This document shows positions 10,049 through 43,826 of a stretch of DNA of 60,025 nt, in pieces. The stretch's first letter is position 1; every line of letters starts with the position of its first letter. The notes under the pieces were generated by a model. It was not told the origin of the DNA and made no database searches. It saw only the letters and a program-made list of their open reading frames with translations. Origin of the DNA: a virus; the IMG/VR virus record IMGVR_UViG_3300009136_000006, positions 1 through 60,025 of that record. One strand, written 5' to 3'. Made by a program: the position numbers and the translations under genes.

Positions 10049-12955
10049 ATGGGTACGTTTGATTCATTTGCCGACAGTCCATTTCAAATTCGGACCGAAG
10101 GTCAAGAAATAACAATTATTTTTGCGAGAACCGGAGAAACAACCGGACGTATCTCGTGGAATATTCCTCCTCCAGCATTAGGTTGTAATGCTGATCAACA
10201 AGCCTATAATGGTATTGTTGTCACTATAGACAGTACTGGTACTGCGGTATCAAAGCAGCCTGTAGATAAAACAGTCTATACCGCAGATCCTACAGGGAAT
10301 GAAGATTTACATGCTGGTGACAAAATCGGAACATCATTAGTTGTTGGTGCATTCTATGAAGACAAAGTAACAACATTTCTTGACATAACAGGATTAACAT
10401 CTGATCAAGTTGTATATGCTTCGGGTTTTGCTGTTGATGCACAGAACAGATATCACACTGCAGGTGTCCACTCTTATTCTCTTGATTACGAAGGTGGTAA
10501 TGAAAAAGATCCAATAGCAAGTGCACAGTACGTTGTACTTGGAGTCGATGGAACAGATCCAACATTGTTAACTGGTGAAACTGAATACAACTTTACACTC
10601 AACGTTGATGGAACAGAACACGACCTTACGGTGAACGGAACAGATTCTTCAACATATGATCAACTTGTTGCTGCGATTAATAAAGAAATAGCATTAACCG
10701 AAAATCCTATTGAAGATGTTAATCCACCAAACGCTGGTGAGTATTATTGGAATTCTACAACAGAAAGATTGTTTTTGTGGGATGGATACGAAAATGTTGA
10801 ACAAACTGTCATTGCAGAAGACACTGCTCCAAATACACCAGCGACTGGAGATTATTGGTACAACCCAACTACAGAAATATTGTATCAGTGGAATGGTGCT
10901 TCTTGGGATGTTCAAGTATACATAAATTATTATAAAGATCCTACAGCACTGAATGGAAGTGATTATTGGTTTGATGGAACGAATGCATATGTGTGGGATG
11001 GAAACACATGGTGCCAAAATCCATTAAGTAACCAAACAGTAGATCCATCGTTGCCTGTATTGCCTGAATTTGGTACTTATTGGTATGATACTGTAAACCT
11101 TTTTCTTAATAAATGGAACGATCAAACCGTTTCGTGGGATGCTGTCGATGCTATATATTGGGGTGTTGATCCTAATGCGTTGGCCGTTAATACATATTGG
11201 TATGATGAAACAAACGCTGTTGTAAATCAGTGGGATGGTTCAGCTTGGAATTTAATTGCTGCTACAATAAGCAGTACCGAACCACCATTTCCTCCTCCAA
11301 ATTCTTATTGGTATAATCCTGACACTGAAGAATTGAAACAACGCAATCCAGCAAATACTGCTTGGGTCGATTTAACAATTCTTGTTTTTGCAGATGATCC
11401 AACTGATCGTACTTCATGTGGTTTGTGGTGGAACTCTGCTACTGATCTTCTTTACGTTTGGGACATCGTTACAGCAAGTTGGGATCAAGTAACTAACTTT
11501 TTGCAACAAGCAACTGATCCTGCTGCCGCTCCGACATTGCCAGTTGATCATATGTGGTACGAACCTACAACAATGATCTTGTATCGTTGGGATGGTTCAA
11601 TGTGGGTGACTGTAAATTACATTGACTACCCAACTGATCCAACACTTGCTCCAATTGATACTGTATGGTTTGATTCAACAAATTCATTGTGGTATGAAAG
11701 AAGTGGCTCTCCATTATCTTGGATGTTGTTTGATCCTATCGACGCAACTTCGGATCCTTCTATTCCAACAACTGGAACGTTCTGGTTCGATACTACAAAT
11801 ACAATATTGTATCAGTGGACAGGATCGCCTGGTGCTTGGGTTTCAATTCCATTCTCTACTATTCCTTTAACACCAGTTAATGGAACACTATGGTTTAATT
11901 TAAATGATGATGTTATGTATGAATGGAGTAGTACAGCGTGGATTGTCGCGACCTTAATTGCAACAGCAGAAATGTCTGGTGGCGATATAAAATTTACCAG
12001 TGCAACAAAATCGAGTCAGTCTCTTATCATTATAACTGATGGTGACTTATTCTCATCATTGACTCCAGCAGGACAACTTAGTAATATAATAATAGGTGCT
12101 GATGGAATTGATCCAGAACCGATGTATGCTCAACTTGGTGTTGGGACAGATGGGACTGTAGACGAAAGACGCGAATTGATGGATAGCATTCGAGCGCAAC
12201 TTGGTTACCCTGTTGTCGATGTAGAGTTGACAAAATACCAAATGGATACAGCGATAACAGCAGCGTTAGAATCTCTTCGTAAGAGAAGTTCTGCTGCATA
12301 CAACCGCACATTTTTCTTTGTAGATATTCCGGTCGGCGAACAAGCAATTTTCTTAACAGATAAAACTGTAGGTTTTAATAAAGTTGTAAACGTGCTTGGT
12401 GCTTACCGTGTAACATCAGCATTCCTTTCTACAGCTTTTGGTTCAGGTGTTTATGGACAAATCGCTTTGCAACATTTATATACAATGGGAACATTTGACT
12501 TATTGAGTTATCATCTTGTTGCTTCATATATTGAGGAATTAGAAGTAATGTTTGCAACACGATTAGTATACAATTGGAATGAGCAGACAAGATTGTTAGC
12601 ATTCCACCAAACATTTGGTGCGACTGGAACGATAAATGGATTGCCTGGTGGAGTTCAAGCAGAAAGAATTTTACTTGATGCTTCCATTGAAAGAACTGAA
12701 CAAGAATTATTAGCTGATCGTTGGACAAAGTCTTGGATTGAAAAATATGCATCAGCACAAGCTCGATTAATGCTTGCAGAGATCAGAGGAAAATATGCTT
12801 CATTGCCAGGTGCTGGTGGTGGTGTGTCACTTAATGCTGGTGAACTTATCAGCCGTGCCGATATTGATATGGCCGATTGTTATCAGCAACTTGAAGACTA
12901 CGTTGTTAATCCGGTTGAAGAATATGGAATCGGCGTTCAGTTTACAATAGGATAA
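10049..12955 (+). CDS. gp13-like neck protein with long repeat-bearing N-terminal extension
   Basis: A 968-residue protein in three parts. Residues 1 to about 165 look like a fibronectin-III-type beta domain, followed by a small domain with the pattern YNFTLNVDG...TYDQLVAAI near 185-215. Residues about 225-635 hold roughly eleven repeats of 35-40 residues, each with a YW(Y/F)(D/N) core followed by L-Y-x-W-(D/N)-G-x-W. Residues about 690-968 resemble the neck protein of marine T4-like phages (annotated gp13): DSIRAQLGYPVVDVELT, aromatic NRTFFFVDI, then a long helical tail with GGVSLNAGELI. T4 gp13 is only 309 residues. The C-terminal domain probably joins the portal-neck ring, with the repeats projecting outwards. 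The gp13 assignment is from family memory. Confidence 0.7.
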   Translation: MGTFDSFADSPFQIRTEGQEITIIFARTGETTGRISWNIPPPALGCNADQQAYNGIVVTIDSTGTAVSKQPVDKTVYTADPTGNEDLHAGDKIGTSLVVGAFYEDKVTTFLDITGLTSDQVVYASGFAVDAQNRYHTAGVHSYSLDYEGGNEKDPIASAQYVVLGVDGTDPTLLTGETEYNFTLNVDGTEHDLTVNGTDSSTYDQLVAAINKEIALTENPIEDVNPPNAGEYYWNSTTERLFLWDGYENVEQTVIAEDTAPNTPATGDYWYNPTTEILYQWNGASWDVQVYINYYKDPTALNGSDYWFDGTNAYVWDGNTWCQNPLSNQTVDPSLPVLPEFGTYWYDTVNLFLNKWNDQTVSWDAVDAIYWGVDPNALAVNTYWYDETNAVVNQWDGSAWNLIAATISSTEPPFPPPNSYWYNPDTEELKQRNPANTAWVDLTILVFADDPTDRTSCGLWWNSATDLLYVWDIVTASWDQVTNFLQQATDPAAAPTLPVDHMWYEPTTMILYRWDGSMWVTVNYIDYPTDPTLAPIDTVWFDSTNSLWYERSGSPLSWMLFDPIDATSDPSIPTTGTFWFDTTNTILYQWTGSPGAWVSIPFSTIPLTPVNGTLWFNLNDDVMYEWSSTAWIVATLIATAEMSGGDIKFTSATKSSQSLIIITDGDLFSSLTPAGQLSNIIIGADGIDPEPMYAQLGVGTDGTVDERRELMDSIRAQLGYPVVDVELTKYQMDTAITAALESLRKRSSAAYNRTFFFVDIPVGEQAIFLTDKTVGFNKVVNVLGAYRVTSAFLSTAFGSGVYGQIALQHLYTMGTFDLLSYHLVASYIEELEVMFATRLVYNWNEQTRLLAFHQTFGATGTINGLPGGVQAERILLDASIERTEQELLADRWTKSWIEKYASAQARLMLAEIRGKYASLPGAGGGVSLNAGELISRADIDMADCYQQLEDYVVNPVEEYGIGVQFTIG
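10720..11965 (+). repeat. About eleven Trp/Tyr-rich coding repeats
   Basis: These coding repeats have a period of about 105-120 bases. Each encodes a core such as YWYNPTTEILYQWNGASWDV, with variants YWFD, YWYD, LWWN, MWYE, VWFD, FWFD and LWFN. They have diverged in DNA but are regular in protein. The same module occurs singly in the fibre proteins at 37261, 41457, 58522 and 59685. Confidence 0.85.
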
Positions 12956-13594: not shown

Positions 13595-15166
13595 ATGGCT
13601 TCATGTAAGGAAAATCCTGATGGTACTAAATGTCCTGATACTGGTGACTCAACATCCGACTGCGCTCCATGGCAGTTAACGAAAAGTAATGACAATTGCT
13701 TTATCGATGAAGTAGTTGACGAAAACCTTAATATTGGCGGCGCTGATATTAATGTATTCAAGCTTCTTGGTGTTCACGAACAAGGACAATTAATAGACCT
13801 AACAGAAAACGGTAGTGCGATCTCTAATGGAGATTGGACAGGGTTTCCTGCGTCTAATGCGTTTGATATCTTCGTATCTGAATGGAGATCGTCACAACAA
13901 GGAACTAATGTCCCTGCGACTGCATTCATCGGTTATGATTTCGGTGAAATTAAATTAGACAACAACAGACTTCGTTATGGAATAGACACATCAGTAAGAC
14001 ATAACATTGCAAAAATTAATATCAAACAAGGAGCAGTAGCAAAGAATAGAGCGACTCGTGTTCGCATGGAACGATCATCTGATAGCGTTACTTGGTACGG
14101 TGTAGGAATTTTTACTCTTCCAGATGACGATGAACTTAATACAGTTGAGTTTAATCATACAGTACCATCACGTTACTGGAGAATGCGACCAATTGATTTT
14201 AATGGTGGTGTAAACGATCAATGGATTGTTCAGGCGTTTGAGATGATGGATTACGACAGAACCTCAATCGATGATATTCAGGATGACATTTGGCTCGAAA
14301 ATAGAGATCGAGATTATGCATCCGAAAGTGTATTGATTAAAGGTTCATATGATTTGCTTGATCACCAAACAGAACTTTCTCGTTTTGGTATTGAGCTTCC
14401 GAGTCAACAATTTTATATTGTCGTAAGTTTTTCATCATCAGTAGCACAACTTGGACGTCCTCTTGTTATTGGTGATATACTTGAAATGCCAAGTGAATTA
14501 CAATATGATCCATTGCTGCAGCCAGTCAAAAAATATCTTGAAGTTACAGACGTTGCTTGGAGTACTGAAGGTTACACACCTGGATGGGTTCCAGTGTTGC
14601 AAAGAATTATTGCATCACCAATGCTTGCATCTCAAGAAACTCAAGACATCTTTGGAGGACTTGCTCCAAACATTGACGATATGGGATTGTCGGATACAGA
14701 CGATGGACAAAATCCAATCTTCCAAGATATTTCGAATGTTAGTCAATCAATCGAAGCGGAAGCTTTTGATGACACTCCTGAACGGGGTGGTGACGTAAAT
14801 GACATACATCAATTTTCACAAGAAGAAATTGACTCGGCTGCAGATCAGGGCGTTTCTAATATAAACAAACTTGGTGTCAACCCAACAGGGTTATATGTTG
14901 AAGATGCTATGCCTCCAAATGGATATGAATATTCACAAGGAGATACATTACCAGCAGAACCTACTGATGGTGATTACCATAGATTAACATACACAGGAAT
15001 ATCTCAGGACATTCCTGCAAGATTGTTTAGATGGTCGGTATCTAAAGGAAGATGGATATATATGGAAACAGACAAAAGAGCTCAGTACAATAATACAAAA
15101 CCGATATTACAGGAATTTTTGTCTAGTACGACAGCACAACCACCTGGCGAAGTTGAAAACGATTAA
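13595..15166 (+). CDS. gp14-like neck protein with F5/8C (discoidin-like) domain
   Basis: A 523-residue protein, twice the length of T4 gp14 (256). The N-terminus has five Cys in the first 40 residues. Residues about 60-205 resemble a coagulation-factor-5/8 type C (discoidin) domain: PASNAFD near 90, IGYDFGEIKL, then VRMERSSDSVTWYGVG and the closing RYWRMRPID. From about 235 the sequence follows the gp14 pattern, with LLDHQTELSRFGIEL, RPLVIGDILEMPSEL and the long tail. T4 gp14 is a neck protein acting in head-tail joining. F5/8C domains usually bind glycans or phospholipids, so a surface-binding decoration is inferred. The gp14 call is supported by the adjacent gp15. Confidence 0.68.
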   Translation: MASCKENPDGTKCPDTGDSTSDCAPWQLTKSNDNCFIDEVVDENLNIGGADINVFKLLGVHEQGQLIDLTENGSAISNGDWTGFPASNAFDIFVSEWRSSQQGTNVPATAFIGYDFGEIKLDNNRLRYGIDTSVRHNIAKINIKQGAVAKNRATRVRMERSSDSVTWYGVGIFTLPDDDELNTVEFNHTVPSRYWRMRPIDFNGGVNDQWIVQAFEMMDYDRTSIDDIQDDIWLENRDRDYASESVLIKGSYDLLDHQTELSRFGIELPSQQFYIVVSFSSSVAQLGRPLVIGDILEMPSELQYDPLLQPVKKYLEVTDVAWSTEGYTPGWVPVLQRIIASPMLASQETQDIFGGLAPNIDDMGLSDTDDGQNPIFQDISNVSQSIEAEAFDDTPERGGDVNDIHQFSQEEIDSAADQGVSNINKLGVNPTGLYVEDAMPPNGYEYSQGDTLPAEPTDGDYHRLTYTGISQDIPARLFRWSVSKGRWIYMETDKRAQYNNTKPILQEFLSSTTAQPPGEVEND

Positions 15167-16023: not shown

Positions 16024-18543
16024 ATGGCTACATTAGTAAGTCCAGGCGTAAGTGTAACGGTAACGGATGAAAGTTTTTTCATTCCAGCAGCCGCATCCAC
16101 TGTACCGTTAATTTTTATTGCTACTGCTGCTGAAAAGGTTCAATCTGATGGACTTTCACCGGCGGCTGGTACTTATGAGAACGATGTTGTTCGAACTGTA
16201 ACATCTCTGACACAAAGTCTCGAGTTGTATGGAGTTCCATTATTTCTCGAAGATGCAAGTGGTCAGCAACTTCATGGTGATTCTCGTAACGAATATGGTC
16301 TTTTTGGACTAAACCAATTCTTAGGAATAGGTAACAGAGCTTTCGTAGTTCGCGCAAACGTTAACACAAACGACGATATTGACGCCGTTCGTGATTCTTG
16401 GGACTCCAAGATGACAACTAGCGGAATTACACTTGAAATTCTCGCACAAAACTTTATAAACGAATACAACGATGCAAACGGATTGATTCCAGCAGATTCT
16501 GGATATAAGACAACTATCACAACCAGTGAATTTATTTCATTATCCGAATCAGCAACTTCTGATATTTGGGATCTTAGTACTTTTAGTCCTCTCAGAGAGG
16601 ACTTCTTTGATGATGCCGGTGATCCTTCTTCAGCAACAGCTGGTGAGCAAACAGTTAACATGTCACTTAGTGACCAAGATGAAGTTGCACAAGTAACTCA
16701 GGTTGTTACAAATGGTGACAACAACGCAAATCGTCATGAAGGTAATTACTTTACTCTTCATTCAACAACTACTGATTACTACGTTTGGTATAATCTTAAT
16801 GGTGGTTCACCAGCAACAGTTGATCCTGGCCTTGCTGGATACACTGGCATTCCAGTAACATATGATTTAGATGATTCAGCAACAGTAATTGCTAATAAAA
16901 CTAGAGCAGCAATTAACGCTCTTGGTGGTTCACCATCAGCAGTATTCACAGCGACAAATATTACAAACACTGTAACAATTACTAATGACGTAGCTGGTGA
17001 TGCTACGAATGCAGTTGACGGTGGAGCTTCTCCATCCGAAGCAACTGGTTTCGTAATTACTACAAACACTGAAGGTGTTGACGCAGCAATTTACTCTGCT
17101 GTCGCATCTGGACTTGCGAATGATGCAACAGCATACACAGCAACAATTCTTGTTGATGGTACTGCTAACGTTGTAAGTATCGTAGGTAGCACAGCACAAA
17201 CATACGCTGACGTAATTACACAACTTGATATCAATCTTACTGGCGCAACATCTGCATTAGTATCACAAGGCGGTTCACCTGCGTTGTACGATATCGTTAT
17301 CACAAGCAGCACAACTGGTGCGACTTCTACAATCAGTATTACAGACGGAGCAACGATTCCATTGTTCGCAACATTAACTGATTTTGATAGTTTTGCAGAT
17401 CCTGTTGATGGCGTTTCTCCTGACTCAGCATTACTTGTTTATGCTAACGGATATTCACAACCATCTACTGGAACATATTCTGGTCTTGAAGGAATTGCAA
17501 ATAACTGGACAAGTGGTGGAACAGTATCTGATGAGTGGACACCTGCAGAAGCAGAAGCAACTCTTAATGGCGCGGCTGATGATTTCAAATTTACAGTAGA
17601 ATTTAAGAACGGAACAAGTCTTGGTGCAAACGACTCAGCACGTAGAGCAACTATCGTAACAGCTCTTCAAGCAACAGTCAACAGCAACACAGAAGTTCGT
17701 TCTGAAAACTTTGAATACAACTTGATCCTTTGCCCTGGTTATCACGAATTGGCTGACGAAATGTTAGCTCTTTCAGCGTTCATCAGTAACGAAGCCCTTG
17801 TTATTGGTGAAACACCAATGAACATGGATCCACAAGAAGTGGTTGCATGGGCAGGAACAACTGGACGTCAAAGTTCAACAGATATTGCTTACTACTACCC
17901 ACATTGTGAAGCTTCAAACCTTGACGGAGTAAACGTCTTTGTTGGAGCAAGTGGTACAGCTCTTCGCACATACGCATACAGTGATGAAGTTAGCCAATTG
18001 TGGTTCGCTCCTGCTGGAACACGTCGCGGATTGATTACAGGTGTAACTGAAATTGGTTACGTAACTGGTGATCTTGGATCTGCAACAACAATCGTTCCAT
18101 TGCACGCAAACCTTGGACAACGTGATGACATGTACAAATACTTCACTAACCTCAACCCACTTGTATTCTTCCCAGGAAGAGGATTGTTGGTTTGGGGACA
18201 GAAGACTTCTGCACCAGCAGCAAGTGCTCTTGACCGTGTAAGCGTTTCACGTCTTATTATGTACATCAGACGTCAATTGCGTAAGAATACTTTGGCATTT
18301 GTATTCGAACCAAATGATCAGCTTACAAGAGATAATCTTAAATCAGCTGTTGATGGATTCTTAGGTGACATCGTTATTAAACGAGGACTTTATGACTTTG
18401 CAACAGTTTGTGACGAAAGTAACAACACACCTGATCGTATTGATCGAAACGAAATGTATATTGATGTAGCTCTCAAGCCTGTCAAGGCAGCGGAATTCAT
18501 CTACATACCGATCCGCGTGGTTGCAACAGGTGCAGAGATTTAA
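16024..18543 (+). CDS. 18: Tail sheath protein gp18, with a large insertion
   Basis: An 839-residue protein, about 180 longer than T4 gp18 (659). It forms the contractile sheath. The N-terminus MATLVSPGVSVTVTDESFF and the C-terminal core (about 570-839: LPGYHELADEML-like, RRGLITGV, GLLVWGQKT, SRLIMYIRRQL, PVKAAEFIYIPIRVV) are typical of phage sheath proteins. The excess lies at about residues 215-480 and consists of Ala/Thr/Asp-rich beta modules (TYDLDDSATVIANKTRAAI; ATILVDGTANVVSIVG), probably exposed on the tail surface. AAGGAG precedes ATG 16024. Confidence 0.95.
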   Translation: MATLVSPGVSVTVTDESFFIPAAASTVPLIFIATAAEKVQSDGLSPAAGTYENDVVRTVTSLTQSLELYGVPLFLEDASGQQLHGDSRNEYGLFGLNQFLGIGNRAFVVRANVNTNDDIDAVRDSWDSKMTTSGITLEILAQNFINEYNDANGLIPADSGYKTTITTSEFISLSESATSDIWDLSTFSPLREDFFDDAGDPSSATAGEQTVNMSLSDQDEVAQVTQVVTNGDNNANRHEGNYFTLHSTTTDYYVWYNLNGGSPATVDPGLAGYTGIPVTYDLDDSATVIANKTRAAINALGGSPSAVFTATNITNTVTITNDVAGDATNAVDGGASPSEATGFVITTNTEGVDAAIYSAVASGLANDATAYTATILVDGTANVVSIVGSTAQTYADVITQLDINLTGATSALVSQGGSPALYDIVITSSTTGATSTISITDGATIPLFATLTDFDSFADPVDGVSPDSALLVYANGYSQPSTGTYSGLEGIANNWTSGGTVSDEWTPAEAEATLNGAADDFKFTVEFKNGTSLGANDSARRATIVTALQATVNSNTEVRSENFEYNLILCPGYHELADEMLALSAFISNEALVIGETPMNMDPQEVVAWAGTTGRQSSTDIAYYYPHCEASNLDGVNVFVGASGTALRTYAYSDEVSQLWFAPAGTRRGLITGVTEIGYVTGDLGSATTIVPLHANLGQRDDMYKYFTNLNPLVFFPGRGLLVWGQKTSAPAASALDRVSVSRLIMYIRRQLRKNTLAFVFEPNDQLTRDNLKSAVDGFLGDIVIKRGLYDFATVCDESNNTPDRIDRNEMYIDVALKPVKAAEFIYIPIRVVATGAEI

Positions 18544-37191: not shown

Positions 37192-37221
37192 AACGAAACC
37201 TATATAGGTTAAAGTCCTTTG

Positions 37222-37229
37222 TATAAATA
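37222..37229 (+). promoter_or_regulatory. Late promoter (TATAAATA)
   Basis: A perfect TATAAATA 39 bases before ATG 37261. It overlaps the 14 codons of an upstream open frame, which argues against the ATG at 37219. Confidence 0.65.
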
Positions 37230-37260
37230 TAAGAAGACTATTATCCAAGAGGTTTCCAGA

Positions 37261-40200
37261 ATGAAAGTATCATTTCGTCAAGGCATTATCAGACATCCAG
37301 TAAGCAACGGTTTGCAAGACTTTTTGCGAGTCAATGGATCATATGTTGATTTAGTAGCTGACAACGGTGATATTGATATTAATTTTGCGCACATATTAGC
37401 AAATTATTACTACACTGAATCGAACACAGTATCACAAGCTTGGGGACCGTTTACAGCAAGTACAGATCAATGGTTATACTGGGATATTGATTTATTAACT
37501 GGTGCTCGTACGTTTGGAATTACTTTACTCGAGCCAATTACATCTGATTCAGAACCAACTTCACCAGCCGATGATCAACATTGGTTTGATAGTGTATCTA
37601 CCACAATGTTTGTATATTCGAGTGGTGCATGGAATGCTCGTGTTCGAGTATTTTCAGCAATGTTCAATGGTGTTAACGTATTCACATCGATGTCAGGTGG
37701 ATTGTTGCAATATCCGTTCGCAGGTTCACAAGTTAGCTTAGGAACAGAAACAAACTTCTCAGGAAGAATTGTTTTTGATGGAACTGGTGCAGTCGTAACG
37801 AAAACATCAACTGAACTTTTTACAACAGAAGATCAATTCTTCGCTGAAGGATCAGATATTAGTGCTGTTCGATTAGAGTCAAATGTTCATCAGGCAACGA
37901 CATATGAAACGATTGGTGCTTACAATATTGTAAAATACATGTCTGATGGAAGAATTCAATTAGCGGCATATAATGATATCGGTGATACAGTTGTTGGTGT
38001 TGTTCCAGAAGCAACACTTCAAGGAAATATTGGAACAGTTATAGTTCAAGGCTCCATTAAAAATATTAGTTGGACATGGACAACAGTTAACGCTCCATTA
38101 TGGATTAATGACAGTGGAGAGTTAACAGAAACAGATTTGAGCATATCCGATCCATCAGGACACCCAGTTAAGCACGTTCCAGTCGGTCGTGTTATATCAT
38201 CAAACGAAATTATTTTTGAACAAGGTCTTGGTGGAATAGGAAGACAAGGTCCGCAAGGCGATGCTGGTCTGGATGGTGGATCTGCTTGGGGAACAATCGC
38301 TGGAACATTATCAGATCAAACAGATTTACAAACAGAATTAAATGCAAAGGCGGATAACAGTCACACACAAGCGGCGACTACTGTTACTGTCACTGCTGCA
38401 GGAAATATCTCATCAGCAAACGTTCAAGCTGCACTGGAAGAATTAGATACGGAGAAACTTGCTGTCACTGGTGGTACACTTACTGGATCGTTGATACTTG
38501 ATGGTGATCCATCAGTCGCACTTGGTGCTGCAACTAAACAATATGTTGATAATTCTACGAGTCCTCCAGCAGGCGCAAATACACAACTACAATATAATAG
38601 CAGTGGTGCATTTGGAGCGAGTGCTAACTTAACTTATGATGGAACAGCCATTGATTTAGATGGAAGAATTGAGTTATCGAGTGCAACTTCTGGAACACCA
38701 AATGTTCGTTTTGAACAAACTGGTGAAACAGCCGACGAAGGAAACTGGGAAATAAAAGTTACAGATAATGAATTTTCAATTCATGCAGCAAACGATGCCT
38801 ACGATTCAATATCAGAAATGATAAAAGCTGAAAGAGGAACAGGAGAGTTAGTTTCAGTTTTAAATATTGGATCAACAGAAGTTGATCAATTAGAATTATC
38901 TGCTGCGACCGTAGTTAATGTTAATACACCGCTGGTCTCGTTAGCAAGTGATACAGCATCAGCAGGATTTAATATTCCAGAAGGCGTTGCTCCAACGTCT
39001 CCAGTCGATGGTGATATGTGGGTTACCATTGATGATATATTTGCACAAATTAATGGTACAAGCGAATCACTTCTTGGTGGAGGTGGAGGTGTTCCAGCAG
39101 GCGGAACCGTAGGTCAGTTTTTGATTAAACAATCTGCAACAGACGGCGATGCTATATGGGATGATTTAGGTGCTTCGGTGGCTGGCAGTGAATATTGCCC
39201 AGGTTATGGATATACATTTATAAATGTAGGTAGCTTTAGTGTTCCTGGTGTTGATGTTACTAACCTTATAGCAACTGGTCGAAACTTAAAATTTATCGAA
39301 GGAACAACATTTACATACGGCGAAGTAGTATCTAGTTCATTTGGTGGCGGTGTCACTACCGTAATAATGGACATGAATGGCGCAGAAGAATTAACTGCTG
39401 GAGTTACTGAATTTTGTATGGTAACTGGAGCAACAACTTGGAGCCCAGCGGCCGCTGATCCATTTTCCGGTAATGCAATTCAGGATATAGTCAGTGGTTC
39501 CGTTGGCGGCACAATATACTGGGTTATAGTCGGCAATGGCGGCAGAATAGCGTATAGCACAGACGGTGGTCTTACATGGACTACAAGTTCATCCGGCACA
39601 GTAGAAAACTTATATCAAGTAGATTTTAATCCTAATGCTGAGACATTTGTAGCGGTAGGTAACGGAGAAGTAATCACACGTAGCACAGACGGTATTAACT
39701 GGACAGCAGACACCGTTCAAGTTAATACAATAAAAACAGACGGCGACGGCGATGTTCTTGGCGTTATTTACCATCCTAAACTTGGTGTCGATGAATGGAT
39801 GATTGCATTCCAATCAGCAGCAGTAGGCACAATAGCTATGGCTTATAGTACAGACGACGGCGTTACGTGGACTGTTTTTGAAACATCGTTAGTGACAAAC
39901 GCAACGAGTATTCGTGACAGCGGCCTGAATGTTTTTCGGACGACTGCTAATGTATTACAAGGCGTAATGTACGCAAGCTCAGCTGACGACGTGTATTACG
40001 TTACAGACAGAACCGACATTTCTGACCAAGTCTTAATAAACAACAGCGGCCGCGCAAAAGTCACAGCCTTAATATCAAGAGACTGGACATTGGGCGGAGG
40101 ATTAGCACATTTTCAAGGTTTTGCTGATGGCGAAATTGCACGAAGTACGAGCAACTTTGAAACCACTCCTAACACTACATTTGGCACAAGTGCTATTAGA

Positions 40201-41427
40201 GCCTTTGCTTGGTCAAACACACACAATCGAGTGGTAGCTGTAGGAGATGACGGCAAAATTGCTACTATCGAAGAGTCCAATATGGGCAGCGGCGAAGGTC
40301 CGTTCTCTTTAGTAGCTAACGGCTCAAACCCATTATCAAACTTTACTGAAGTCCATTGGGATGAAACTGATGGGTTATTTATTGCGGTCAATGACGCAGG
40401 ACAAATATTACGATCAACTAATGGACTTGGTACTGGAGCATCTTTTGAATATTCTGGTTGGACTGCTATCGCAGCTGATCCATTCTCTGGTGGAAACATT
40501 GATTTTATTGTTACTGGTACAATTGGCATAACTGAATGGTGGATGATAGCTGGAAGCACACAACTATATACATCGACTGATGCCGGCATAACTTGGACTG
40601 TAAGAACAACAAATCTTACTACATCAATTACAGCACTTTCCTATGATTCAACCAACGAGGTATTCGTAGCAGGAACCTCTGACGGAGACTTTTCTTGGAC
40701 ATCCAATGGAACGGCGTGGACACTTGACAACACGTCGGTTACTGCAATTAAAGCCGCCGGAAGCGGTCGTATCAACTCAATGGTTTGGGACATCGCTGGG
40801 GGTTTATGGCAGTTTATAGTTGATCACAATGCGACTTCTGTTGGCACCTATAGTTGCACTGGAACTTTTACAGGATTTGCAATTCACGAAGGCTCAACGA
40901 CAGCGAACATGGGTTACCGTAATACAGGCGTTTACCAAACCGGGATTGCATCCCGCTCAATTTGGTCTGGTGGTACCACAATAGGACAATATTGGTCTGG
41001 TGCTACTGATACAGGACCATCGGCTCACGCAAGCATGGTAGAAACTATTACTGCTGTTTTTGGTAAACCAGGAACGTTAGGCGATGCCGCTGATATTTTT
41101 TACGGCGATAATAACGGCGATATAGAGTTATGGGCTACTGCAAAAAGAACTGGATGGCAAGGGGCGTTGGTTGGATCGGTAAATGGTATTGCTTGGTCGT
41201 CGGTATCAGACAGAATGATAGCAGTTGGTAACGCTGGCGAAATTAAAACCATAGCTGGAGCGGCTATCGAATCAGGCGGTTGGTTTAATGTTGTCACACC
41301 ATTTAGCGGTAACATAAATGCAGTAGCATATAGCGCATCAGACGACATATTTATTTGCGTTTGCGCCGACGGTGTAATAGCAAGATCAACAGATGGTATC
41401 AGCTATCTTGCAGGATCACCAGCATAA
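37261..41427 (+). CDS. Tail fibre with duplicated Asp-box (BNR-like) tip
   Basis: A 1388-residue protein. The start MKVSFRQGIIRHP is chosen because the paralogous next gene begins the same way and AGAGG lies upstream. Residues 1 to about 460 are the shared fibre shaft: AWGPFTASTDQWLYWDIDLLTGARTFGI, a single WFD...W repeat, a short collagen-like GRQGPQGDAGLDGG, and KADNSHTQAAT and TKQYVDN trimerisation elements. From about 725 come two related copies of a region with Asp boxes (S-T-D-G-x-x-W, e.g. YSTDGGLTW, RSTDGINW, STDAGITW), typical of sialidase-type beta propellers. It probably recognises a surface glycan. No sialidase catalytic set was assigned. Confidence 0.85.
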   Translation: MKVSFRQGIIRHPVSNGLQDFLRVNGSYVDLVADNGDIDINFAHILANYYYTESNTVSQAWGPFTASTDQWLYWDIDLLTGARTFGITLLEPITSDSEPTSPADDQHWFDSVSTTMFVYSSGAWNARVRVFSAMFNGVNVFTSMSGGLLQYPFAGSQVSLGTETNFSGRIVFDGTGAVVTKTSTELFTTEDQFFAEGSDISAVRLESNVHQATTYETIGAYNIVKYMSDGRIQLAAYNDIGDTVVGVVPEATLQGNIGTVIVQGSIKNISWTWTTVNAPLWINDSGELTETDLSISDPSGHPVKHVPVGRVISSNEIIFEQGLGGIGRQGPQGDAGLDGGSAWGTIAGTLSDQTDLQTELNAKADNSHTQAATTVTVTAAGNISSANVQAALEELDTEKLAVTGGTLTGSLILDGDPSVALGAATKQYVDNSTSPPAGANTQLQYNSSGAFGASANLTYDGTAIDLDGRIELSSATSGTPNVRFEQTGETADEGNWEIKVTDNEFSIHAANDAYDSISEMIKAERGTGELVSVLNIGSTEVDQLELSAATVVNVNTPLVSLASDTASAGFNIPEGVAPTSPVDGDMWVTIDDIFAQINGTSESLLGGGGGVPAGGTVGQFLIKQSATDGDAIWDDLGASVAGSEYCPGYGYTFINVGSFSVPGVDVTNLIATGRNLKFIEGTTFTYGEVVSSSFGGGVTTVIMDMNGAEELTAGVTEFCMVTGATTWSPAAADPFSGNAIQDIVSGSVGGTIYWVIVGNGGRIAYSTDGGLTWTTSSSGTVENLYQVDFNPNAETFVAVGNGEVITRSTDGINWTADTVQVNTIKTDGDGDVLGVIYHPKLGVDEWMIAFQSAAVGTIAMAYSTDDGVTWTVFETSLVTNATSIRDSGLNVFRTTANVLQGVMYASSADDVYYVTDRTDISDQVLINNSGRAKVTALISRDWTLGGGLAHFQGFADGEIARSTSNFETTPNTTFGTSAIRAFAWSNTHNRVVAVGDDGKIATIEESNMGSGEGPFSLVANGSNPLSNFTEVHWDETDGLFIAVNDAGQILRSTNGLGTGASFEYSGWTAIAADPFSGGNIDFIVTGTIGITEWWMIAGSTQLYTSTDAGITWTVRTTNLTTSITALSYDSTNEVFVAGTSDGDFSWTSNGTAWTLDNTSVTAIKAAGSGRINSMVWDIAGGLWQFIVDHNATSVGTYSCTGTFTGFAIHEGSTTANMGYRNTGVYQTGIASRSIWSGGTTIGQYWSGATDTGPSAHASMVETITAVFGKPGTLGDAADIFYGDNNGDIELWATAKRTGWQGALVGSVNGIAWSSVSDRMIAVGNAGEIKTIAGAAIESGGWFNVVTPFSGNINAVAYSASDDIFICVCADGVIARSTDGISYLAGSPA
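39436..41424 (+). repeat. Two divergent copies of an Asp-box domain in the fibre tip
   Basis: Copy 1 is about 39436-40450 and copy 2 about 40451-41424. They open alike (TWSPAAADPFSGNAI and WTAIAADPFSGGNI). Copy 1 uses GGC and AGC codons heavily and contains two GCGGCCGC octamers (39448-39455 and 40046-40053). Most of the window uses GGT, GGA and TCA. Confidence 0.75.
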
Positions 41428-41456: not shown

Positions 41457-43826
41457 GTGAGAGTACCATTTAGACAAGGAATCATTCGTTATCCATACAG
41501 CGGATCGTTGCAAAACTTTCTTCAGATTAATGGAAGTTACATTAATTTAAACGCTGCCAATGGACAAACTGAAGTAACACTTGCTCATCGCGGAACAAAT
41601 TACCTTCACATTGAAAACAGTACGGTTACGAATGCTTGGGGACCTTTCACTGCGAGTACAGATCAGTGGTTGTATTGGGATATTGATTTATTAACTGGTG
41701 CTCGTACATTTGGAATTACATTAGTTGAACCAGTATTCAGTGCGACTGAACCAACATCTCCTGTCGCAGATCTTCATTGGTTTGATTTAACAAATAATTT
41801 TATGAACGTATACTCAGGCGGTTCATTTTCTGAAGTCGTCCGAGTGTTTGCTGCCAAATTTGACGGGAATGTAACATTCTCTCCAGTTGCAGCAGGTTTA
41901 ACAAATCTTCCATACGCTGGAACACAAGTAGGATTAAATATTAGCAACTTCTCTGGAAGAATCATTTTTGATAATCTTGGAAGTGTTATAACAAGAGAAA
42001 ATAGCGAACTGTTTACAACCGAAGATCAATTCTTCGCAGCAGGTGCTCAAATAAATGCAGTTCGCTTGGAGTCAAATGTTCACTATGTAGAAGCAAGTGA
42101 AACACTTGGTGCATGGACTGTTGTTAAATATACAACAGGTGGATTGGTAACACCAGCTGAATATGGCGATACTGGAAGTTCAACAATTGCGATCGTTCTT
42201 CAAGACACAGCTGTCGGAGAAGTCGCAGCAACAATAATTCAAGGTGTCGTTAAAAGTTCTATTTGGACTTGGCCAACAATAGGTACAGAATTATGGGTTA
42301 GCACGAATGGTTTACTGGTAGATGTCGATCCAAGTATATCTGATCCATTAACATATCCTGTTAAACAAGTTCCTGTCGCTCGTGTTCTTTCAACAACAGA
42401 AATTATCTTTGAACAAGGATTGGGTGGAATAGGAAGACAAGGAGTAAAAGGAGATGATGGATTAGACGGTGGATCAGCATGGGGAACTATTGCTGGAACA
42501 CTATCTGATCAAACTGACTTGCAAGCTGAATTAAACGGCAAGGCTGACAACAGCCACACTCAAGCAGCGACAAGTGTTACATTTCAGGCTGCTGGAAATC
42601 TTTCGTCTGCAAATGTTCAAGCCGCACTGGAAGAATTAGATACAGAGAAAGTAGCAGTCGCTGGTAGTACAATGACTGGACTTCTTATTTTAAGTGGAGA
42701 TCCTTCAAACGTATTAGGAGCTGTAACAAAACAATACGCTGACGCAATAGATAATGCAAAAGTTGCGATTGCAGGTGACACCATGACTGGATTGTTAACA
42801 CTCAGTGGTGATCCTTCAACAAGTCTCCAAGCAGCTACAAAACAATATGTTGATAACTTACTTGGTGGAAGTGATCTTGGTGATTTGTCAGACGTCACAA
42901 TTACAAGTCCATCCCAAAGTCAAGCATTGGTATATGCAGGAAGTCCTGCGATATGGATTAACGGAGACATAATCGCTTCGACAGTTCCCGTTACTCCTTT
43001 TGGTGGTAGTCCAACTGGAATTCAATCAACTAACGTACAAGACGCATTAGAAGAATTGAATGCTGATATTATAGCAAACACTGCTGGTCTTCAACCTTAT
43101 GATCTTGCTGGTCAAGTTGTTGGATTACCTGATGCAGGTGCAACAGTTTTTCGTTTCTTATCGGTACGAGATTTTACAATTCCGACATCAGGTTCACTCG
43201 CAATGGCAGATGTTGCATCAACAGGTTCTGCTGTGTTCGATGTTGACGTTAATAATACAACAGAAATGTCAATTACATTCGCCACATCAGCTACTGGAAC
43301 AGTTACTATGATCGGTTCACCAGCAGTAGATTTAATTATTAATACTGGTGACGTAATTACAATCGTCGCGCCTGATCCTCAAGATGCAACTTTATCAGAT
43401 ATTGAAATGACATTATTTGGATATATTGATCCGTTGTATGTCGCACCAGTTCCTGATTTTACTCCAGGCGTAGAAGGTTTTACTATTACAGAAGGCAATG
43501 TCGCATTTGATTTTGGTTATTCCGATACAACCGATCACACAGGAATGGGATCAGTCGCTCCGACAACAACATCCGGCCCGTTTGATTTGAAAGCAGCATA
43601 TATTCAAAACCTCGGAATTTATTTCAATATTCGTATTTCAGGCAATCACGCAGAAGCAGCTATAACTCAAGTTGAACTTGTCGGATATGAAACTGTTACA
43701 ACAGCAGGTGATTTGATTTCTCATAGTTATGATGCCGGAGATGATTATACGTGGTGGCAGTGGACTGTCGCAGGTGCGCACTGGAACGGCAGTGGGACAG
43801 AGGATATCAACATAACATTCTCTTAA
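41457..43826 (+). CDS. Second tail fibre, paralogue of the preceding gene
   Basis: A 789-residue protein starting with GTG 41457 behind GAGGG. Residues 1 to about 470 repeat the plan of the previous fibre (VPFRQGIIRYPYSG, AWGPFTASTDQWLYWDIDLL, GLGGIGRQGVKGDDGLDGG, KADNSHTQAAT, two MTGLL-LSGDP-KQY shaft units). The C-terminus (about 540-789) is unrelated to the Asp-box tip and is beta-rich with Trp near the end (YDAGDDYTWWQWTVAGAHW). The pair looks like a shaft duplicated with a different receptor-binding tip on each copy. Confidence 0.82.
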   Translation: MRVPFRQGIIRYPYSGSLQNFLQINGSYINLNAANGQTEVTLAHRGTNYLHIENSTVTNAWGPFTASTDQWLYWDIDLLTGARTFGITLVEPVFSATEPTSPVADLHWFDLTNNFMNVYSGGSFSEVVRVFAAKFDGNVTFSPVAAGLTNLPYAGTQVGLNISNFSGRIIFDNLGSVITRENSELFTTEDQFFAAGAQINAVRLESNVHYVEASETLGAWTVVKYTTGGLVTPAEYGDTGSSTIAIVLQDTAVGEVAATIIQGVVKSSIWTWPTIGTELWVSTNGLLVDVDPSISDPLTYPVKQVPVARVLSTTEIIFEQGLGGIGRQGVKGDDGLDGGSAWGTIAGTLSDQTDLQAELNGKADNSHTQAATSVTFQAAGNLSSANVQAALEELDTEKVAVAGSTMTGLLILSGDPSNVLGAVTKQYADAIDNAKVAIAGDTMTGLLTLSGDPSTSLQAATKQYVDNLLGGSDLGDLSDVTITSPSQSQALVYAGSPAIWINGDIIASTVPVTPFGGSPTGIQSTNVQDALEELNADIIANTAGLQPYDLAGQVVGLPDAGATVFRFLSVRDFTIPTSGSLAMADVASTGSAVFDVDVNNTTEMSITFATSATGTVTMIGSPAVDLIINTGDVITIVAPDPQDATLSDIEMTLFGYIDPLYVAPVPDFTPGVEGFTITEGNVAFDFGYSDTTDHTGMGSVAPTTTSGPFDLKAAYIQNLGIYFNIRISGNHAEAAITQVELVGYETVTTAGDLISHSYDAGDDYTWWQWTVAGAHWNGSGTEDINITFS

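What the first reader, a model, noticed from the sequence alone, without database searches (positions are those of the whole stretch)
10049..12955. Neck protein fused to an array of about eleven Trp/Tyr-rich repeats
The C-terminal 280 residues look like a gp13-type neck protein, while the first 635 hold a fibronectin-like domain and a long repeat array. The usual protein is about 300 residues. The repeats share a core with single modules in the tail fibres of this phage. This suggests a ring of flexible, possibly glycan-binding arms around the head-tail junction, unlike T4 whiskers, which are made of fibritin.
Basis: partly seen in the sequence, partly recalled or inferred. Interest (0 to 1): 0.7.

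Follow-up and report, generated by a model that had tools for sequence, protein, structure and literature searches.

The report
Phage neck protein with built-in collar arms
In a T4-like giant-phage lineage, the ring protein that joins head to tail carries, fused to it, an immunoglobulin-like domain and a chain of exactly eleven small tryptophan-rich modules, so the particle probably gets a ready-made collar with the ring instead of attaching separate fibres as phage T4 does.

Summary
ORF 10049-12955 (968 aa) is one gene whose C-terminal part (about 701-968) is a gp13-type head-tail adaptor: profile against T4 gp13 E 2.6e-12, predicted-fold Z 12.7. Residues 11-144 have a fibronectin-III fold. 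Residues 223-638 hold eleven repeats, each above all its shuffles in a leave-one-out test.

The architecture is shared by about 60 metagenomic phage contigs and by isolates XacN1, CM1 and RAS14, where annotated records say "hypothetical protein".

(1) The array is inserted into one small domain whose halves flank it; the phage's own sheath protein holds an uninterrupted copy. The array is thus a loop anchored at both ends, not a free arm. (2) 37 of 45 relatives have exactly eleven repeats, each more like its counterpart in other phages than its neighbours. Spacing is nearly fixed except at the repeat 5/6 junction, probably the loop's tip. This argues against flexible beads. (3) T4's fibritin-binding domain is absent, and no fibritin gene was found in eight records searched.

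Glycan binding has no support: the tryptophans look structural. Location on the virion is inferred. Verdict: new variant of a known kind, a gp13 adaptor with a built-in collar.

The parts
10049..12955 (+). Fused neck adaptor gene, 968 aa: FN3-like domain, split IN-like domain carrying 11 repeats, gp13 domain
   Evidence: full-length match to phrog_211 'head-tail adaptor Ad2' E 5e-208
10079..10480 (+). FN3-like domain (res 11-144)
   Evidence: predicted fold, Z about 8-9 to many FN3 domains; Pfam fn3 not reached
10511..10714 (+). N-terminal half of IN-like domain (res about 155-222), beta-beta-alpha
   Evidence: joined-halves HMM, hmm 2-82; weak Flagellin_IN 18.9 bits, cut-off 22.7
10715..11962 (+). 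Array of 11 repeats (res 223-638), each predicted as up to four short beta strands
10715..10825 (+). repeat 1
   Evidence: 37 bits
10829..10930 (+). repeat 2
   Evidence: 46 bits
10937..11026 (+). repeat 3
   Evidence: 29 bits
11054..11161 (+). repeat 4
   Evidence: 30 bits
11168..11278 (+). repeat 5
   Evidence: 43 bits
11282..11389 (+). repeat 6; the 5/6 junction is where relatives gain or lose sequence
   Evidence: 30 bits
11396..11515 (+). repeat 7
   Evidence: 32 bits
11534..11635 (+). repeat 8
   Evidence: 43 bits
11636..11743 (+). repeat 9
   Evidence: 27 bits
11753..11854 (+). repeat 10
   Evidence: 42 bits
11864..11962 (+). repeat 11
   Evidence: 31 bits
11963..12100 (+). C-terminal half of IN-like domain (res about 639-684)
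   Evidence: joined-halves HMM, hmm 82-132, iE 1e-7
12125..12160 (+). conserved linker (GVGTDG motif, res 693-704), low model confidence but among the most conserved stretches
   Evidence: invariant G697, G699, D701, G702; mean pairwise identity 0.54 for 685-704
12149..12952 (+). gp13-type head-tail adaptor domain (res 701-968), without T4 domain III
17107..17412 (+). Uninterrupted copy of the split IN-like domain in the tail sheath protein (res 362-463 of ORF 16024-18543)
   Evidence: iE 1e-9, hmm 23-132; hhalign 97%, E 4e-11
37555..37638 (+). single repeat module in fibre-like ORF 37219-41427
   Evidence: 18 bits
41751..41837 (+). single repeat module in fibre-like ORF 41457-43826
   Evidence: 16 bits
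58816..58896 (+). repeat module in Gp10_C-containing ORF 58459-59685; a second, weaker one at res 163-179
   Evidence: 24 and 10 bits; Gp10_C 58 bits

Best explanation
It is a gp13-type head-tail adaptor with a collar built into its N-terminus. By analogy with T4, twelve copies form the ring between portal and stopper; every copy brings an FN3-like domain and an IN-like hub domain from which one fixed array of eleven beta modules loops out and back. When the ring docks on the filled head, a collar of up to twelve arms (132 modules, about 0.9 MDa) would be installed in one step, without separately docked fibritin. Its most likely job is structural: a fairly rigid shelf that braces the head-neck-sheath joint and gives folded tail fibres something to rest on. 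Shown here: the fusion, the gp13 identity, the inserted position of the array, the fixed number and register of repeats, the variable 5/6 junction, the lack of fibritin (in the records searched) and of T4 domain III. Inferred: dodecamer, outward projection, the 5/6 junction as distal tip. Guessed: bracing and fibre docking.
For: gp13 identity by profile and fold, by full-length phrog_211 match and by its place among gp20, gp23, gp15, gp18 and gp19 homologues. The array sits inside one domain: the sheath protein's uninterrupted copy aligns across both halves at E 4e-11, against 1.1e-6 and 4.7e-7 for single halves and 1.1e-6 for swapped halves; L054 holds a second uninterrupted copy. Eleven repeats in 37 of 45 relatives, nearest neighbour at the same position in 357 of 407; position-matched identity 0.39 against 0.27. 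Centre-to-centre spacing sd 0.3-7 residues except 30.6 at repeats 5-6, where three relatives carry an extra IN-like stretch. Model of 152-690: mean pLDDT 93.6. In T4, gp13 is a dodecamer and its domain III docks fibritin (PMC12270204); that domain has no counterpart here.
Against: No virion or microscopy data for this protein were found; XacN1's negative-stain EM reported no tail fibres and its text mentions no collar, which also weakens a fibre-docking role. Loss of domain III is general outside T4 among the gp13 proteins compared, so it is no special sign of replacement. pTM is only 0.45 for the whole model and 0.64 for 152-690, so the relative placement of modules is uncertain. How the N-terminus leaves the ring was not modelled.
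Confidence: 0.62

Rival explanations
1. Accessory adhesion: the arms are receptor- or glycan-binding devices on the collar that catch host surface sugars before the tail engages.
For: The same modules occur in fibre-like ORFs of this phage and of XacN1 and RAS14; FN3/Ig-like domains on phages are proposed to bind cell-surface carbohydrate weakly (PMC10721106); the array diverges faster than the gp13 domain (0.35 against about 0.50 identity); the next large virion gene carries an F5/8C discoidin-type domain.
Against: No lectin or CBM match. Conserved Trp recur at the same module positions in all repeats, as a structural core would. Fixed number and spacing are unlike adhesins that grow and shrink. 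In phage A-1(L) the neck-fibre carbohydrate module did not bind the host (PMC10966104).
Confidence: 0.2
2. Assembly or scaffolding tail: the N-terminal part helps place neck, head or sheath during assembly and may be removed or hidden in the mature particle.
For: The IN-like domain is shared with the sheath protein, which may point to a common partner; neck decorations are proposed as possible assembly chaperones in phage 812 (PMC12886913).
Against: No protease-site evidence; domain order and length are conserved throughout; no virion proteomics could be read.
Confidence: 0.12
3. Flexible beads-on-a-string whiskers.
For: Modules are separated by Pro-rich linkers (consensus start DPTTP); pTM well below 0.8.
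Against: Spacing nearly fixed at nine of ten junctions; both ends anchored in one domain; high pLDDT throughout.
Confidence: 0.15

Closest known systems
T4 gp13 neck protein (head-tail adaptor Ad2, phrog_211)
   Same: C-terminal 268 residues: helix-bundle and swing domains, sequence profile E 2.6e-12, fold Z 12.7; neighbouring T4-type structural genes
   Different: Carries about 690 extra N-terminal residues; lacks fibritin-binding domain III (T4 residues 190-239)
T4 fibritin (wac) whiskers and collar
   Same: Works like it at most: appendages at the gp13 level
   Different: T4 whiskers are separate trimeric fibres docked on gp13 domain III (PMC12270204); here modules are fused in and no PF07921 match exists in 8 records
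Phage A-1(L) neck fibres (gp82/gp81/gp80)
   Same: Chain of repeated beads at the neck
   Different: Separate proteins forming 100-nm trimeric fibres on a pentadecamer (PMC10966104); not fused, no sequence link tested
Phage Milano collar and phage 812 neck decoration proteins
   Same: Coverings around the neck, proposed to strengthen it
   Different: Separate gene products attached to the neck
Xanthomonas phage XacN1 ORF268, Stenotrophomonas phages RAS14 and CM1
   Same: Same architecture over the full length, about 40% identical, eleven repeats in XacN1 and RAS14
   Different: Annotated only as 'hypothetical protein' (CM1 record has no annotation)
Short forms L066, L069, L071, L072
   Same: Similar N-terminal domain, same repeat type, gp13 domain
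   Different: 485-506 aa, only two repeats; no IN-like match found

Membership tests
gp13-type head-tail adaptor (Ad2) | Sequence homology to T4 gp13 | tested here: met
   Profile A3 vs 9mkb/9lu4 gp13 E 2.6e-12, two collinear stretches; phrog_211 E 5e-208
gp13-type head-tail adaptor (Ad2) | Fold: four-helix bundle plus swing domain | tested here: met
   9lu6_A Z 12.7, rmsd 4.0 over 119 residues, model 701-968 on chain 3-308
gp13-type head-tail adaptor (Ad2) | Dodecameric ring on the portal, binding gp14 | not testable with these tools
   Known for T4 (PMC12270204)
T4 gp13 with fibritin-binding domain III | Domain III, T4 residues 190-239 | tested here: not met
   15 residues opposite T4 186-242 instead of 57
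Fibritin (wac) whiskers | Fibritin_C (PF07921) in the genome | tested here: not met
   0 of 8 records incl. XacN1 and RAS14; T4 control E 2.3e-34. The window itself is only a fragment
Fibronectin type III domain | FN3 beta-sandwich fold at 11-144 | tested here: met
   Z about 8-9, rmsd mostly 2.2-3 over 83-95 residues, many FN3 entries
Fibronectin type III domain | Pfam fn3 above cut-off | tested here: not met
   Best 11.2 bits in L006, cut-off 25; the fold match carries the claim
Flagellin_IN (PF07196) | Pfam score above cut-off | tested here: not met
   18.9 bits, cut-off 22.7; called 'IN-like' only
Beta-propeller | Closed ring of four-stranded blades | tested here: inconclusive
   Foldseek lists many propellers at low probability with rmsd about 30-45; best Z 2.3
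Carbohydrate-binding module or lectin | Match to a known CBM or lectin family | tested here: inconclusive
   No Pfam match in the array; absence does not exclude binding

The most novel reading that the evidence does not exclude
A new kind of neck appendage: instead of docking separate fibres, the adaptor ring itself carries twelve fixed, rigid hairpin loops, each of eleven blade-like beta modules inserted into a single hub domain, with the loop tip at the repeat 5/6 junction.
Probability: 0.4. Interest if true: 0.66.

Novelty: new variant of a known kind. Interest (0 to 1): 0.52.

Why it matters
All other neck decorations met in the papers read here (T4, A-1(L), Milano, phage 812) are separate proteins attached to the neck. 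An adaptor with a built-in decoration of fixed size would couple collar formation to sealing of the head, and it gives a simple test of what collars are for: trim the array without touching the ring. It also puts a function class and a testable location on a 970-residue protein that is 'hypothetical' in the annotated phage records.

Tried and rejected
Expandable tandem repeat: rejected, number and register are conserved. Assembly artefact or chance fusion: rejected, the same single ORF in about 60 contigs and three isolates. The C-terminus as something other than gp13: rejected. Trp/Tyr richness as evidence of glycan binding: not accepted. Closed propeller: not supported, but fold search of a long repeat model is weak. 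Repeat profile against PDB sequences: nothing better than E 0.43. Next gene as gp14: profile comparison with T4 gp14 not significant. Mirror symmetry: median repeat spacings are mirrored around the 5/6 junction (permutation frequency 0.003), but this was noticed after the fact and mirrored repeats are not more alike in sequence (0.252 against 0.267), so it is only a hint of a hairpin. Position of the XacN1 protein in virion proteomics: not found in the main text; supplements could not be read. No megablast relative of the region in phages.

Full report
What is there. The window is a 60,025-base virus record with T4-type structural genes: portal, major capsid protein, tail sheath stabiliser, sheath, tube and large terminase homologues. 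ORF 10049-12955 encodes 968 residues. The whole protein matches phrog_211, 'head-tail adaptor Ad2', at E 5e-208 over 964 of 976 profile positions, so this architecture is already inside a database family, although no paper found in the searches describes it.

The C-terminal domain is gp13. Annotated neck proteins of jumbo myophages match residues from about 692 onward. A profile of 45 relatives finds T4 gp13 at E 2.6e-12 in two collinear stretches. In the AlphaFold2 model (mean pLDDT 82.9, pTM 0.45) residues 701-968 align with T4 gp13 at Z 12.7. Between the two stretches T4 has a further domain, residues 190-239, which in the virion binds fibritin (PMC12270204). Here 15 residues stand opposite T4 186-242 instead of 57; the same holds for the other stand-alone gp13 proteins compared, so this is a T4 peculiarity rather than a loss tied to the arms. 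No Fibritin_C was found in XacN1, RAS14, five long contigs or the window, while T4 gave E 2.3e-34.

The N-terminal domain, residues 11-144, has an FN3 fold, below Pfam's sequence cut-off.

The repeats. Eleven repeats of about 38 residues, consensus DPTTPTCGTYWYNTTTNKLYQWDGTAWVEVTVIVQPT, fill residues 223-638. Each beats all its shuffles when left out of the model. Most are predicted as four short strands. Local fold matches are to beta-propeller blades but no closed propeller is supported. Related single modules sit in three other ORFs of the window and in fibre-like ORFs of XacN1 and RAS14.

The array is inserted into a domain. Residues about 155-222 and 639-684 look like the two halves of one small domain resembling Flagellin_IN. 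A model of the joined halves, built without the sheath, finds an uninterrupted copy in this phage's sheath protein at residues 362-463 (iE 1e-9) and hits the neck protein as two parts meeting at model position 82. Profile alignment to the sheath copy gives E 4e-11 for halves joined in order, about 1e-6 for either half or for swapped halves. L054 carries another uninterrupted copy between its repeats 5 and 6; similar stretches lie there in L059 and L061. The array therefore starts and ends at the same place: it is a loop.

Fixed number and register. Of 45 relatives 37 have exactly eleven detected repeats. Repeats resemble the same position in other phages (0.39) more than other positions (0.27), and the nearest neighbour is at the same position in 357 of 407 cases. 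Relatives with eight or nine seem to lack repeats near positions 5 and 6. Centre-to-centre spacing varies by sd 0.3-7 residues everywhere except between repeats 5 and 6, where it is 30.6. A loop whose mid-point is free to vary and whose flanks are not is the simplest reading; the mid-point would be the tip. The array is strongly acidic (net charge -44 here, median -35).

Distribution. Among 50,697 phage records only XacN1, CM1 and RAS14 match the array region. In IMG/VR, 73 loci were found with a profile. Four contigs (L066, L069, L071, L072; L071 and L072 look identical) hold a short form with two repeats. In a tree of the gp13 domain, long and short forms group together (support 0.78), beside stand-alone gp13 of RaK2, PA5oct and others; long forms alone have support 0.47.

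How it most likely works. As in T4, gp13 should form a twelve-membered ring on the portal (inference). Each subunit would then present its FN3-like and hub domains and one looped array. The best-supported function is structural, a collar that braces the joint and may hold fibres; adhesion is the main rival. No experiment places the protein. XacN1 EM showed no tail fibres and the text mentions no collar.

Limits. Coordinates and inter-domain errors of the models were not available; pTM values are moderate. Metagenomic contigs are fragments. The mirror-like spacing is a post-hoc hint only.

Noticed in passing
window 13595-15166; L001 10949-12604: The next large gene, before the gp15 homologue, has an F5/8 type C (discoidin) domain, above Pfam's cut-off in XacN1 ORF267; relatives lie in 64 of the fetched loci. 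Position suggests gp14, but profile comparison with T4 gp14 is not significant.
   Followed up: partly
window 16024-18543, residues 362-463: The tail sheath protein contains an uninterrupted copy of the domain that the neck protein's array interrupts.
   Followed up: yes
L054, L059, L061, between repeats 5 and 6: An extra IN-like domain sits at the middle of the array (the model match is significant in L054 only).
   Followed up: partly
BFVD hits A0A2I2L6E5, A0A2I2L5J8, A0A2I2L5F3, A0A2I2L3G6: Predicted structures of Orpheovirus proteins, three named collagen-like, match the model strongly (E down to 5e-22), suggesting similar modules in a giant virus of amoebae; which part of the model they match was not printed.
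   Followed up: no
L079 3001-3780: The PA5oct gp13 match starts 27 bases upstream of the annotated start, so that gene start may be annotated too late.
   Followed up: no
window residues 685-704 of the neck protein: The linker before the gp13 domain is predicted with low confidence yet is among the most conserved stretches (0.54), with an invariant GxGxDG core.
   Followed up: no
window 37219-41427: A 1402-residue fibre-like ORF with BNR/Asp-box repeats and one repeat module; no PHROG match.
   Followed up: no
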